The notes beneath the pieces were generated by a model. The model was not told the origin of the DNA. It did not search any database and saw only the letters and a program-made list of their open reading frames with translations. The translations under genes were made by a program, and so were the position numbers. From Saprospira sp. CCB-QB6 (GTDB lineage Bacteria > Bacteroidota > Bacteroidia > Chitinophagales > Saprospiraceae): DNA of 64,000 bases. Shown in pieces: positions 6,477 through 49,061 of the stretch (position 1 is the stretch's first letter; each line of letters opens with the position of its first letter). Where the stretch lies: the NCBI RefSeq assembly GCF_028464065.1, contig NZ_CP116808.1, positions 3,067,501 to 3,131,500 of the forward strand, written 5' to 3'.

Positions 6477-6615
6477 TTTTGGGGCCCGCGGCCGAACAGG
6501 CCTTCGGCCTGCATCGGCCGCCGCTATGCTGCGCCGCTCGCTACTCGCTCGGCCCTGCAGCCCTGCGCCTGGCTTTGGTCTGGCCCTTCGGGCCACGGCT
6601 GCGCAGCGCTGGGCC
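6477..6615 (+). repeat. Dispersed structured element, copy 3 (subfamily 2)
   Basis: It begins TTTTGGGGCCCGCGGCCG and ends GCGCTGGGCC; the end arms GGCCC/GGGCC pair. It directly follows the pdhC terminator and precedes the 41-bp array by about 150 bp. A 75-residue open frame across it is not a gene. Confidence 0.88.
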
Positions 6616-6765
6616 GCTCAACGGCCTTTCTCTCTTTGGGCTCCCTGCTTCGGCCGCCAATTCTATGGTAAGAAGAGAACCCGCTTTATCATTTAGCCCC
6701 TAAGCGCCTATCCTTAAACTCTAGTAGGGGAGGCCCAGAAAAAAAATATAGGCCAAATTAGATAG

Positions 6766-7132
6766 GGCCCCAGTTAAATGTAATGATGCAGATGGCTAGG
6801 GCCTGGGGCCGGAGCTAAATGTAACGATGCAGATGCCTCTGGCCTGGGGCCGGAGCTAAATGTAACGATGCAGATGCCTCTGGCCTGGGGCCGGAGCTAA
6901 ATGTAATGATACAGATGCCTCTGGCCTGGGGCCGGAGCTAAATGTAATGATACAGATGCCTCTGGCCTGGGGCCGGAGCTAAATGTAATGATACAGATGC
7001 CTCTGGCCTGGGGCCGGAGCTAAATGTAATGATGCAGATGCCTCTGGCCTGGGGCCGGAGCTAAATGTAATGATACAGATGCCTCTGGGGAATTCCCAGA
7101 GCTAAATGTAACGATTCAGACACCTCTGGGGG
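6766..7132. repeat. Tandem array of nine 41-bp hairpin units (array 1)
   Basis: The spacing between successive TAAATGTAA motifs is 41 bp. Each unit has a hairpin CTCTGGCC-TGG-GGCCGGAG (one G-T wobble) and an AT-rich linker CTAAATGTAATGATACAGAT. In the penultimate hairpin the arms become CTCTGGGGAATTCCCAGAG, so both sides changed together. Small substitutions (taacg/taatg, gatac/gatgc) separate the units. There are no variable spacers and no cas genes, so this is not CRISPR. No open frame spans it. Confidence 0.92.
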
Positions 7133-7384
7133 TTTTCTTCGACTCGCTTGTACAAGAGGTCTGGTACTAAGGTATTGAAGGCCGCGTTTTGGATGAAAGA
7201 AGAAAAGGAAATTGGATTATAGCGCTTTTAAAGAGTTATCGGGGCCATGAGAGGGCTGCTTAAAAGCAGCTCTTTGAGGAATATCTTTATCTATAATAGT
7301 CATATTTTCAGTCGAAGGCTTATCTTCAGTAGAAGGAGGCGGAACCGCTGCCCTCAAAGCAACAGAAAAAAACTCAAAAATAGG
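7133..7384. other. Non-coding stretch before the ABC operon
   Basis: After the array there are 250 bp without a credible gene. The stretch holds a hairpin GCTGCTTAAAAGCAGC near 7255-7270 and an imperfect direct repeat (TTTTCAGTCGAAGG / TCTTCAGTAGAAGG) near 7306-7337. An in-frame upstream extension of the ABC gene to 7247 exists but reads as non-protein sequence. Confidence 0.5.
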
Positions 7385-45343: not shown

Positions 45344-46294
45344 ATGAGAAAACTCGCCTTAATCGGCCTTTTGGCCCTCTTTATTTCGCCTAGCTTTGCC
45401 CAAGGCCTCTTGCCCCCCAAAGACAAAAATCCCAGAGAACGCATTTTGTCCAATAAGGCAGAAGAGGGCATGACGCACCTCATTATCCGACTCGAAAAGC
45501 CAGCATATCGCGCCCAAAGAGCAATTGGCTATAAAGAAGCAAGGGCCAAACTGAAGGTTGAGTTTACGGTCTATGATATTCGAAGCCGAGGCACCGATTT
45601 AGGCGATACCTATCTGGCCTATTATGACCCCAAAGGGGATGAATGGGGGATCTATTTGCCCCATAATACCGCCTTTAAGGTGCGTATGTCGCACCCCAGT
45701 TTTAAAACCATTACCCGCAATTTTATTACCGCCGAGCATCCTGCAGACCTTATGGAGGAGCGCCTAGAAGTAGAGGAGCTACCTTATACTTATCATAAGG
45801 GCGTAAAAACGTACTACCTCAAAACGATGCTGCGCTTTTCCGAAACGATTGTGGTCCATTTTAATGGGGGCGATCCCATGGAGCACATGACTTATCTGCA
45901 AGAAAACTTCAATGCCGAAAAGGTCCAAAAGCTGCCGCATGTCAATAGCTTTTTCCTGACGCTCAATATCCACAGCCAAGAGTCTTTGGCGGAGATTCTC
46001 CTGCGGCAAGCCCTAGGCGATAAGGCCCTGCCCGAAGGCTATTATTTTGGCCCCGCCATTACCGAGGCCATCGAGAAATTACAAAAGTATCCCTTTACCA
46101 AAGTTGCCGAACCCAGCTTTATCGTTTGGCCCAATAAGGAGCCCTACCTTTCCAAAAATGATTATAGCCAGCTCTCTAATATGATAGCTGATTTTAAAGA
46201 TCGAAAGTTTACAGAGCATATCCTCCTCAATCCCGATGATTTCGAGAAGAGCAAGGATTATAAACATAAGCTTTTACTAGAATTACAAAAGTAA
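45344..46294 (+). CDS. Exported protein, unrecognised
   Basis: 316 residues with the signal peptide MRKLALIGLLALFISPSFAQ. Residues about 65-135 have the strands of a small beta-sandwich (KLKVEFTVYDIRSRGTD, LPHNTAFKVRMSHPSFKTITRNF), like the carboxypeptidase-regulatory or SpaA-like folds of Bacteroidota surface proteins. The remainder is mixed helix and strand without a known motif. It is the last gene of the folB operon and is followed by a terminator. Confidence 0.65.
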   Translation: MRKLALIGLLALFISPSFAQGLLPPKDKNPRERILSNKAEEGMTHLIIRLEKPAYRAQRAIGYKEARAKLKVEFTVYDIRSRGTDLGDTYLAYYDPKGDEWGIYLPHNTAFKVRMSHPSFKTITRNFITAEHPADLMEERLEVEELPYTYHKGVKTYYLKTMLRFSETIVVHFNGGDPMEHMTYLQENFNAEKVQKLPHVNSFFLTLNIHSQESLAEILLRQALGDKALPEGYYFGPAITEAIEKLQKYPFTKVAEPSFIVWPNKEPYLSKNDYSQLSNMIADFKDRKFTEHILLNPDDFEKSKDYKHKLLLELQK

Positions 46295-46339: not shown

Positions 46340-46472
46340 GGGGCCCGCGGCCGCCCCTTTGGGGTGGGGCGGCCGCCGCTATGCTGCGGGGCTCGCAAGT
46401 CTGCTCGGCCCTGCAGCCGCCTTTGGCGGCTTTGGTCTGGCCCTTCGGGCCACCGCTGCGCAGCGCTGGGCC
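46336..46472 (+). repeat. Dispersed structured element, copy 17 (subfamily 2)
   Basis: It begins TTTTGGGGCCCGCGGCCG and ends GCGCTGGGCC; hairpins GCCGCCTTTGGCGGC and TGGCCCTTCGGGCCA. It overlaps the terminator T-run and is followed by array 2, the same order as copy 3 and array 1. Confidence 0.92.
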
Positions 46473-46625
46473 GCTCAGCGGCCCTGCGGGCCTTCGCAGA
46501 AAAGCGGTATTCGTCGCTGCGCTCCTCATCCGTTTTCACGACCCCGCCCACCCGCCCCTCTTCGGAATCCCTTAAGGGATTCCTCAGGGGGAAGGGCAGG
46601 CAGCTTTTTAGATTGTTCTTTCCCC

Positions 46626-47196
46626 CAGCCTAATTTGCGGATTACAATTGGCGTTGGGAATTTCCCAGAGCTAATCTGCGGATTACAATTGACGTTGGGA
46701 AAATCCCAGAGCTAATCTGCGGATTACAATTGGCGTGGGCGTGACGCCCAGCCTAATTTGCGGATTACAATTGGCGTGGGCGTGACGCCCAGCCTAATTT
46801 GCGGATTACAATTGGCGTGGGCGTGACGCCCAGCCTAATTTGCGGATTACAATTGGCGTGGGCGTGACGCCCAGCCTAATTTGCGGATTACAATTGGCGT
46901 GGGCGTGACGCCCAGCCTAATTTGCGGATTACAATTGGCGTGGGCGTGACGCCCAGCCTAATTTGCAGATTACAATTGACGTGGGCGTGACGCCCAGCTT
47001 AATTTGCAGATTACAATTGACGTGGGCGTGACGCCCAGCTTAATTTGCAGATTACAATTGACGTGGGGAAAATCCCAGAGCTAATCTGCAGATTACAATT
47101 GGCGTTGGGAATTTCCCAGAGCTAATCTGCAGATTACAATTGGCGTTGGGAATTTCCCAGAGCTAATCTGCAAATTACAATTAGCTTGGGGAGGGT
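46626..47196. repeat. Tandem array of fourteen 41-bp hairpin units (array 2)
   Basis: Fourteen units with a 41-bp period, measured on the GATTACAATT motif. Each has a hairpin and a linker CTAATTTGCGGATTACAATT. Eight central units use the hairpin TGGGCGTGACGCCCA; outer units use TTGGGAATTTCCCA or TTGGGAAAATCCCA, so both arms change together. In late units the linker becomes the palindrome AATCTGCAGATT. The edge units share CCCAGAGCTAA with array 1. No variable spacers and no open frame. Confidence 0.93.
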
Positions 47197-47416
47197 GTAT
47201 AAGGCCCTGTCTTTTTTTTCTGGACCGACCCTACTACAACTTCACTAAGCTCGCTTAGGCGCTAAATAGGCAAGCCCCTTGATTTTTAAGCCTAAAAAAA
47301 GGGCGCAAAACCTAAGTTTTGCGCCCTAAATGCGAAATTAGCTTAACATTCGTTCTTTTGGCTATTAAGGCCCCTAATAGCGAGTGGCCATCTTTTGCTA
47401 TGGGGCGGTTTAAGAT
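47197..47416. other. Non-coding stretch after array 2
   Basis: Apart from the terminator at 47294 this 220-bp stretch shows no gene, promoter match or repeat. Confidence 0.5.
47294..47327 (-). terminator. Terminator of the three-winged-helix membrane protein gene
   Basis: The perfect stem AGGGCGCAAAACC-type (AGGGCGCAAAAC / GTTTTGCGCCCT) is followed on the minus strand by seven T residues, 90 bp after the stop. Confidence 0.88.
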
Positions 47417-48889
47417 CTATGACTCAAAAACAATCTTGCCCAAACTATCGTCTCCTCGATGTTCCTGACGCAGACGGCTCATTTCCTCTATCTCTTCCTT
47501 TAAGCGATCAAAGCGATAGACCAGTTGGTTTTGAGAATTTAAGCTCGACTCGCCTCCTAAATCCTGAATCACTTCCTGCATTAGGGCTTCAACCTGCTCT
47601 TCTTTGAGTTTTTCTTCGGTTTGAGCTTGGTCATTGGCCACTTGGGTCAGCATTTTCAGACTAATAGGAACGCGGACATGCTGAAAGATAACTTTCATCA
47701 ATCGTTTACGTGCATTTTCTTGCCGTTGCTTTCGCTTGAGGGGCAAGAGCCTAAAGTAGCGAAAAGCGGGAATCAAAAAGAAGAGCAGAGAGTAGGTAAA
47801 GGGAATTGCTCCCAGAATAACCTGGGCCAAAAAGGGACCGTTGGCAATAGGGATCTCTAATTCGGCAAAAAAGTGAGGTTGGACCAAAAAGAAGAGCGAA
47901 AAAACTAAGTTTAAGCTATTCATGCCCACAATGGCCCAGTTTCGTCCAGTTTTATTGCCCGTCAGCTCATATTCGGGCTCGTATTCATCCCAATAATAGA
48001 TAATAGGGGCTTCATCGGGTCGGTTGGCCGAGCGGTTTAGCTGACTAAAATCCCCATAAAGGGTAGCCGTACGCTCCGAAATCTTAGCTCGCCCATCATA
48101 ACGGCCCAAAAGCTCTGTCATAAAGTTCTCGGCTTCATCTCTGCGCCAACCCGCCAAAGCTTGTAGTTCTGCAGTAGAAACTAAGCCTTTGTTTTCCTTT
48201 AGAAAACTGGCTACCTCCTTATGGTTGCCATAGGGATCGGGTTGATAGCGAACTGGCCCAAAAATAAAGTCGTAAACAGAGGCCACAAAGCCCTTCTCTT
48301 CCTTAGAACTTTTGCGGTTTTTGCGCAATTTGGCCAATTGACCCGGCTTCTCTACATAATGTTTATAGGGATAGCCGTAGTCGTCTCGGCTGCGGTAGGT
48401 ATAATCATAGCCCAAAATGGTGCTCCACTCAAAAATGGAGAGGAAAACCCGAAAAAGGACCAAAAAGAGCTTGCCCACTCCGCCCGATTTGCTATCATTA
48501 TCCGAGTTGCCTCCCTGCGATAAGAGACCGACAATCAAGGCAATCAGAATGACCACAAACAAAACAAAATAAATGAGCAGAAAAACCGCCGTGACAATTC
48601 GATAGAAGATCTTGAAGCCCTTCCAGAACCAATCGGCAAACTCTTGTAGGCGTTCGCCAAAGCTTTTTTCTGTGCGGCGGTGCAGGCCTGTAAAATCATA
48701 GATTAAATCGCCATTTTCGGTCACTTTGAGCTTGCAGTCGTAGCGCTGCATCAGTTCTCGAATAGCCGACTCGCTCTCAATAATAGGCATACCTGTACTA
48801 GCGGCAGCATCTTCTAGGGTAAATTGCTGATTGCTTTTGAGCAAGTATTTTTCTAGGCGAAGATTGACTTCTTTTTGTTCGTATGACAT
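47417..48889 (-). CDS. Membrane protein with three winged-helix-like repeats
   Basis: 490 residues from the ATG at 48889; upstream in-frame sequence lies in repeat copy 18. Three similar domains alternate with membrane segments. Domain 1 (8-68) has LRLEKYLLKSNQQFTLEDAAASTG and ends DLIYDFTGL; domain 2 (221-284) has VASFLKENKGLVSTAELQALAG and ends ATLYGDFSQL; domain 3 (391-463) has RLMKVIFQHVRVPISLKMLTQVAN and ends QLVYRFDRL. Each looks like a winged helix-turn-helix. Membrane helices lie at about 95-123, 141-160, 320-338 and 352-376. Winged helices usually bind DNA, but here they may serve as protein contacts. No known family is recognised. Confidence 0.72.
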   Translation of the reverse strand: MSYEQKEVNLRLEKYLLKSNQQFTLEDAAASTGMPIIESESAIRELMQRYDCKLKVTENGDLIYDFTGLHRRTEKSFGERLQEFADWFWKGFKIFYRIVTAVFLLIYFVLFVVILIALIVGLLSQGGNSDNDSKSGGVGKLFLVLFRVFLSIFEWSTILGYDYTYRSRDDYGYPYKHYVEKPGQLAKLRKNRKSSKEEKGFVASVYDFIFGPVRYQPDPYGNHKEVASFLKENKGLVSTAELQALAGWRRDEAENFMTELLGRYDGRAKISERTATLYGDFSQLNRSANRPDEAPIIYYWDEYEPEYELTGNKTGRNWAIVGMNSLNLVFSLFFLVQPHFFAELEIPIANGPFLAQVILGAIPFTYSLLFFLIPAFRYFRLLPLKRKQRQENARKRLMKVIFQHVRVPISLKMLTQVANDQAQTEEKLKEEQVEALMQEVIQDLGGESSLNSQNQLVYRFDRLKEEIEEMSRLRQEHRGDDSLGKIVFES

Positions 48890-48926
48890 CTTTCCAATAT
48901 TTGCGTTCCGAGGCGGCGAAGCCGCC

Positions 48927-49061
48927 GGCTTAGGGATGGATAGCGGTGGCCCGAAGGGCCAGACCAAAGTTTTTTGAGCGCAGCGAAAAAAACTGCAGGG
49001 CCGAGCGAATAGCGAGCCACGACACAGCCCGGCCCGCCCGCAGGGCGGGCAAGCCCCAAAA
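48927..49061 (-). repeat. Dispersed structured element, copy 18 (subfamily 3 variant)
   Basis: Read on the minus strand it begins TTTTTGGGGCTTGCCCGCC and ends CCATCCCTAAGCC. The end arms are GGCTT/AAGCC, a compensated variant of GGCTG/CAGCC. Variable hairpin: AGTTTTTTTCGCTGCGCTC..., shared with copy 19. Confidence 0.9.

What the first reader, a model, noticed from the sequence alone, without database searches (positions are those of the whole stretch)
46626..47196. Array 2: fourteen units with the same 41-bp period and related design
Although the linker is different (TAATTTGCGGATTACAATT), the period is again exactly 41 bp and the edge units share CCCAGAGCTAA with array 1. Hairpin arms shift together among TGGGCGT/ACGCCCA, TTGGGAA/TTCCCA and TTGGGAAAA/TCCCA. 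Two unlinked arrays, 40 kb apart, with equal period and equal layout (hairpin, AGCTAA, AT-rich palindrome-like linker) point to one family with a fixed unit length of about four DNA turns. That would suit side-by-side protein binding on one face of the helix.
Basis: partly seen in the sequence, partly recalled or inferred. Interest (0 to 1): 0.75.

Follow-up and report, generated by a model that had tools for sequence, protein, structure and literature searches.

The report
Leader-capped 41-bp hairpin repeat arrays
The marine gliding bacterium Saprospira carries dozens of DNA arrays built from 41-letter units, each unit holding a small hairpin and most arrays opening with the same starting sequence, scattered between genes; they look like docking arrays for an unknown factor and matched nothing in the searches made here.

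Summary
Window array 2 (14 units, 13 of 13 steps 41 bp) and array 1 (9 units, 8 of 8) are antiparallel members of one family. A sequence model of a conserved 82-nt "leader" matches 33 places in this Saprospira genome and 10, 13 and 13 in three S. grandis genomes, but neither of two draft Saprospira genomes. Of 199 family genomes, only three Saprospira and one weak partial match elsewhere scored; an exact leader pattern over the GTDB species collection hit only S. grandis. TRF gives period 41 for 54 and 42 for 4 of 58 leader arrays. Each unit is a short hairpin (6-bp arms, 3-nt loop) plus a 26-nt linker. Arms change together while linkers stay: in 121 distinct A-family units pair 2 is 67 GC plus 54 CG, all paired, against 61 expected. 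Eight positions are shared with S. grandis, both window arrays included. Hairpin mismatches show no pooled RNA-strand bias; sense terminators after arrays are few; no neighbour gene family is shared by more than 3 of 32 loci. My best reading is a DNA-level docking array with a sopC-like layout. A neutral hairpin minisatellite is nearly as likely. The partner is unknown.

The parts
46612..47185 (-). Array 2: 14 units of 41 bp, read from the leader on the minus strand; B-type linker, arms mostly TGGGCG/CGCCCA with TGGGA/TCCCA variants near both ends
47188..47268 (-). Leader of array 2 (82-nt conserved module with an A8 tract), C1:3114688-3114768
   Evidence: (E 3.9e-21, model R1)
6691..6769 (+). 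Leader of array 1, C1:3074191-3074269, a divergent leader
   Evidence: (E 4.2e-16)
6775..7143 (+). Array 1: 9 units of 41 bp, A-type linker, arms CTGGCC/GGCCGG
45344..46294 (+). Flanking ORF, 316 aa, on the distal side of array 2 (convergent with the next)
47417..48967 (-). Flanking ORF, 516 aa, on the leader side of array 2

Best explanation
Shown: a noncoding DNA element, seen only in Saprospira, made of an 82-nt leader followed by 1-22 (mostly 6-18) units of about 41 bp by a similarity walk, each unit a short palindrome (6-bp arms, 3-nt loop) and a 26-nt linker. It matches 33 places in this genome, and at one compared site leader and array are missing together in a relative. Inferred: it works at the DNA level as a phased docking array. 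A protein, perhaps a dimer per palindrome, assembles one copy per unit, the 41-bp pitch keeps neighbours near one face of the helix, and the leader is the fixed nucleation or boundary site. Arm sequence would matter little as long as the two arms pair, while linkers drift slowly. Local chromosome organisation at gene ends is my guess for the role. The layout is that of the F-plasmid sopC centromere, but dispersed over the chromosome.
For: Leader better conserved at orthologous sites than its flanks: mean identity 0.91 (SD 0.04), against 0.82 (0.14) upstream and 0.80 (0.16) downstream, in the 25 pairs among three S. grandis strains with arrays of at least 5 units (difference not tested for significance). 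The leader has almost no RNA consensus fold (3 pairs). Period: 54 of 58 arrays at 41, 4 at 42. Arms covary while the A linker is kept: pair 2 is 67 GC + 54 CG = 121 of 121, shuffle mean 61.0, maximum 77 in 500 shuffles; pairs 1, 5 and 6 also exceed every shuffle, pairs 3 and 4 do not vary. Eight sites shared across species in the same orientation, six by both flanks and two (array 1 and C1:318765) by the right flank only. At C1:876794 homology with S. grandis WHT stops at the leader edge and resumes 36 bp past the array. Stem mismatches show no significant pooled GT excess over AC (53 v 39, p 0.17; 16 v 19; over nine pairs 105 v 81, p 0.09, and 48 v 43).
Against: No candidate binding protein was found. 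ParB_N has one match in each of 4 genomes; other DNA-binding families were not searched. Arms differ so much between arrays that ordinary sequence-specific binding to them is unlikely. Two draft Saprospira genomes have no leader match. The units counted are related by descent and their register was chosen for pairing. Leader conservation could also reflect a mutational role.
Confidence: 0.33

Rival explanations
1. Neutral or selfish minisatellite. Hairpin-assisted slippage and conversion expand and homogenise units. The 41-bp period is inherited from one founder, and arms stay paired because one arm templates repair of the other.
For: Unit number varies at orthologous sites (9, 16, 17 and 9 units at the array 1 locus). 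Distal ends are worn: the two leader-end units are nearer the array consensus than the two distal ones in 46 of 57 arrays (p 4e-6), though not significantly in DSM 2844 or Lewin alone. No neighbour family in more than 3 of 32 own loci. No replication-strand bias (16 v 17, my count with an origin guessed from GC skew).
Against: Does not by itself explain why the leader is better conserved than its flanks, nor why position and orientation persist at 8 sites.
Confidence: 0.31
2. Repeat-unit noncoding RNA genes: the leader is a promoter and the array is transcribed into a chain of hairpins.
For: Unit hairpins covary. In the A family alone GT mismatches exceed AC in the leader sense (48 v 23, my sum, not tested). 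Leaders have a directional conserved sequence. In S. grandis, terminator-like sites occur inside arrays on the sense strand (23-54% of elements).
Against: In the B family the lean reverses (32 v 46, my sum) and pooled there is no significant bias. Sense terminators in the 250 nt around and after the array end: 9% of 33 own elements, 15-20% in the S. grandis strains, shuffled 2-5%; inside own arrays none of 33 on the sense strand (a simple detector of my own). 3 of 5 tRNA upstreams fit a loose -33/-7 pattern with a TATATTTG box; the leaders lack that box (by eye). No Rfam family at gathering threshold in the window.
Confidence: 0.2
3. REP/BIME-like elements mobilised by a Y1 (RAYT-type) transposase.
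For: Short palindromes in intergenic DNA. In own, convergent neighbours are enriched (13 of 32 against 43 of 264 adjacent pairs, p 0.003; against 21 of 103 pairs with gaps of at least 250 bp, p 0.034). Y1_Tnp occurs in all 6 Saprospira genomes searched. The leader consensus contains GTAG (in TGTAGTAGGG), the tag letters of one REP superfamily.
Against: Only 1-3 Y1_Tnp genes per genome. Units are head-to-tail, not alternating. The S. grandis strains do not avoid divergent neighbours (6 of 13, 6 of 13, 4 of 10).
Confidence: 0.08
4. CRISPR-like growth: an enzyme adds or copies 41-bp units at the leader.
For: Leader plus array layout. Consecutive units are more alike in the leader half (0.945 v 0.901, p 0.0011; 27 arrays for, 17 against, of 49). 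Three arrays switch from B-type units near the leader to A-type units at the distal end.
Against: Orthologous arrays do not show faster turnover at the leader end (first two v last two units, p 0.21 and 0.27). Several arrays show the opposite gradient. Cas1 is absent from the own genome, which has the most arrays.
Confidence: 0.06

Closest known systems
F-plasmid centromere sopC / parS_F (type Ia partition)
   Same: Twelve tandem 43-bp repeats with 16-bp inverted repeats bound by a ParB dimer (passages seen of PMC9178275 and PMC6238139); same scale of period, copy number and one palindrome per unit.
   Different: 33 dispersed chromosomal matches, variable arms, an 82-nt leader, no gene family recurring beside most of them, and a single ParB_N match per genome.
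REP / BIME arrays
   Same: Intergenic palindromes in clusters; in this genome convergent neighbours are enriched.
   Different: Head-to-tail pitch of 41 bp behind a leader; REPs are 20-40 bp, carry an unpaired GTAG or CGTC motif and often lie in opposite orientation (abstract of PMC3733652).
CRISPR arrays
   Same: Leader plus regular array.
   Different: No variable spacers: the linker is nearly the same along most of each array; the own genome has no Cas1 match.

Membership tests
sopC-type partition centromere | tandem units of about 43 bp with one inverted repeat each | tested here: met
   41-bp units in 54 and 42-bp units in 4 of 58 arrays; strict hairpins in 332 of 602 units
sopC-type partition centromere | cognate partition genes next to the array | tested here: not met
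   no ORF family recurs at more than 3 of 32 own loci; one ParB_N match per genome, beside one own array only
sopC-type partition centromere | bound by a ParB-type dimer | not testable with these tools
   needs pull-down or ChIP
REP/BIME | GTAG or CGTC motif at the palindrome foot | tested here: inconclusive
   none noticed at the unit hairpins by eye; GTAG is present in the leader consensus; no systematic scan
REP/BIME | alternating orientation of neighbouring units | tested here: not met
   units run head-to-tail in the arrays listed, which were found as direct repeats; one array has leaders at both ends
CRISPR array | unique spacers between repeats | tested here: not met
   linkers repeat along the array
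CRISPR array | cas1 in the genome | tested here: not met
   no match in own and in two drafts, one match in each of 3 S. grandis genomes
Structured ncRNA (Rfam) | match to a described family | tested here: not met
   0 matches at gathering score in the window
Bacterial minisatellite | head-to-tail noncoding units with copy-number variation | tested here: met
   unit numbers differ at orthologous sites

The most novel reading that the evidence does not exclude
Saprospira has a genome-wide system that builds intergenic arrays with a pitch locked to two or four helical turns. Besides the 41-bp family, unrelated-looking arrays in the same genus have periods 21, 22, 42, 44 and 105, some at the very sites where this genome carries a 41-bp array. 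A dedicated factor would measure DNA in helical turns when it builds or coats these arrays, the leader being its entry point.
Probability: 0.12. Interest if true: 0.88.

Novelty: new variant of a known kind. Interest (0 to 1): 0.6.

Why it matters
Large families of noncoding tandem arrays that keep position, pitch and palindrome while changing the letters of the palindrome are, as far as I recall, rare in bacterial chromosomes. If a factor docks on them, this would be a chromosomal, many-site counterpart of a plasmid centromere array, and the letter-free pairing of the arms would point to recognition of DNA shape or of hairpins. The sites, the leader and three sequenced S. grandis strains make this directly testable.

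Tried and rejected
Leader as structured RNA: RNAalifold finds only 3 pairs, rejected. Leader as promoter: its conserved blocks looked like a Bacteroidota -33/-7 pair (consensus recalled), but three of five tRNA upstreams here carry TATATTTG and the leaders do not; weak. Array transcript ended by intrinsic terminators: not supported in own. Replication-strand bias: none. Partner genes: ORF families recur at no more than 3 of 32 own loci; Y1_Tnp few; Cas1 missing in own. A reverse transcriptase occurs in all 6 genomes; the own one best matches the retron type XIII RT model; as it also occurs in the two leader-negative drafts I did not tie it to the arrays. Gene orientation: convergent enrichment in own only, with a crude ORF caller that can take GC-rich repeats for genes; a looser first count looked stronger. 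Leader-end growth: the within-array gradient is real, but the orthologue test was negative. Wholesale replacement of units between species: my first impression, corrected.

Helical-turn rule: in 400-kb samples of own, WHT and Lewin 26 arrays passed the filter. I class 21 as noncoding, with periods 21, 22, 41, 42, 44 or 105; the script had flagged 7 of these 21 as open frames of 155-191 aa (short frames that I took for by-products of the repeat), so the strict set is 14 of 14. The other 5 (periods 48, 48, 12, 54, 285) lie in ORFs and were set aside. An outgroup sample had no array. Weak points: the WHT sample was picked by synteny to own array sites; 21, 42 and 105 are multiples of three, so some may be coding; many arrays are related; and an 81-bp noncoding array falls just outside the bands I had fixed beforehand.

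Limits of counts: the unit walk could only see steps of 37-45. One of the 13 Lewin leader matches is a weak partial one without an array. Ten of 24 own-only loci were aligned to WHT, those with both flanks placed.

Literature: the listings showed nothing on these arrays; the S. grandis Lewin genome paper (recalled) was not listed. Of PMC10508125 I saw only the start of the abstract in the listing.

Full report
What is there. Window 46612-47185 holds 14 head-to-tail units of 41 bp read on the minus strand, with no indel. Array 1 at 6775-7143 holds 9 units on the plus strand. In each unit a short palindrome with a 3-nt loop is followed by a 26-nt linker. Read in the same sense, the two linkers are alike by eye and both arrays start with the same kind of leader.

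Where it is. The window lies in a 4.24-Mb, 99.9% complete genome. Genomes called same-genus include G002 and G001, whose contig lengths equal those of S. grandis Lewin (NC_016940.1) and DSM 2844 (NZ_JH719942.1), and G005, whose chromosome length equals that of S. grandis WHT. The host is therefore a Saprospira; no tool named its species.

Genome-wide family. A DNA search with array 2 gave 39 matching pieces in the own genome. A 20-nt leader pattern with up to 3 mismatches gave 29 hits, 0 in the reversed control; 27 are followed by at least two 41-bp units. An 82-nt sequence model built from 42 leaders matched 33 places in own, 10 in DSM 2844, 13 in Lewin (one weak, without array), 13 in WHT, and none in two draft genomes of the genus. 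In a sample of 199 family genomes, under stricter filters, 4 matched: own, Lewin, DSM 2844 and one weak 48-nt partial match in another genus. An exact leader pattern over the species collection gave 11 stretches, all S. grandis, and none in viral contigs; array 2 had no match in phage or plasmid records. In a systematic 400-kb sample of the own genome 5 arrays had period 41, two of them outside the leader list, so 33 is likely a lower bound for 41-bp arrays.

Period and hairpin. TRF gives period 41 for 54 and 42 for 4 of the 58 leader arrays it calls. A unit walk over the 69 leader matches (one array with two leaders counted twice) gives steps 41 x520, 42 x23, 40 x2, but could only see 37-45. 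A stem of 5 or more Watson-Crick pairs around a 3-nt loop is present in 332 of 602 units, against 2.3% in permuted controls. In the A family (linker AGCTAAATGTAAnGATnCAGAnGnCT) the arms read CTGGCC/GGCCGG, AGGGGG/CCCCCA, GTGGGG/CCCCAC, GTGGCG/CGCCAC and others. Over 121 distinct units all 121 pair at position 2 although the pair is GC in 67 and CG in 54; pairs 1, 5 and 6 also exceed every shuffle, pairs 3 and 4 hardly vary. Some S. grandis arrays (GGGCATCGTTCAGAG type) lack the inner stem.

Comparison between species. Flanking proteins place 8 own elements at orthologous sites in S. grandis, same orientation, both window arrays included. Six are supported on both flanks; array 1 and C1:318765 on the right flank only. 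For array 2 and C1:1266473 partners were found in Lewin and WHT but not in DSM 2844. At three sites the A linker is kept and the arms differ; at two own has a B-type linker; at three own has a C linker where the others have a B-like one. Leaders are better conserved than flanks. Of ten own-only sites aligned to WHT, five have another kind of tandem array there (periods 42, 42, 21, 42, 42) and five have none; at one of these the element is missing almost exactly between its ends.

DNA or RNA. The tests that could have pointed to RNA mostly did not: almost no leader fold, no significant pooled GT-over-AC bias in stems (the A and B families lean in opposite ways), few sense terminators after arrays (in S. 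grandis some inside them), no TATATTTG box. Within arrays the distal end is worn; the orthologue test does not show growth from the leader.

Conclusion. A leader-capped, 41-bp hairpin array family seen only in Saprospira is established by sequence. That it is a docking array is inferred from leader conservation, pitch and paired arms; the layout resembles sopC, but membership fails on partition genes. A neutral minisatellite remains almost as likely.

Noticed in passing
window 46340-46530 and 6480-6640; also L204, L206, L209, L216: A GC-rich intergenic repeat with its own variable paired hairpins recurs beside several arrays (seen by eye).
   Followed up: no
L204:14905-15427, L206:11151-11554, L209:7253-7650, L211:12624-12925, L215:8841-9107, L216:8474-8842, L217:11572-12078 (S. 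grandis WHT): Other tandem arrays with periods 42 or 21 and different sequences, several at sites orthologous to own 41-bp arrays; L206 and L209 share a CCTAGGGGCT(T/C)GTCCCTAGG module just upstream.
   Followed up: partly
L195:2556-3668: Noncoding array of period 81, 13.7 copies, close to a leader array.
   Followed up: no
L171 (G000:C1:280779 and 281258): One array with leaders at both ends pointing inwards.
   Followed up: no
L264:826-2523: Reverse transcriptase best matching the PADLOC retron type XIII model, with a long inverted repeat upstream; an RVT_1 match is found in all six Saprospira genomes searched.
   Followed up: partly
L170 / L277 (G000:C1:729294-730527): One own array lies just upstream of the single ParB_N gene.
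   Followed up: no
L039:2480-2761: Tandem tRNA-Glu genes with period 102.
   Followed up: no
L261, L262: Cas1 matches in three S. grandis genomes but none in the own genome.
   Followed up: no
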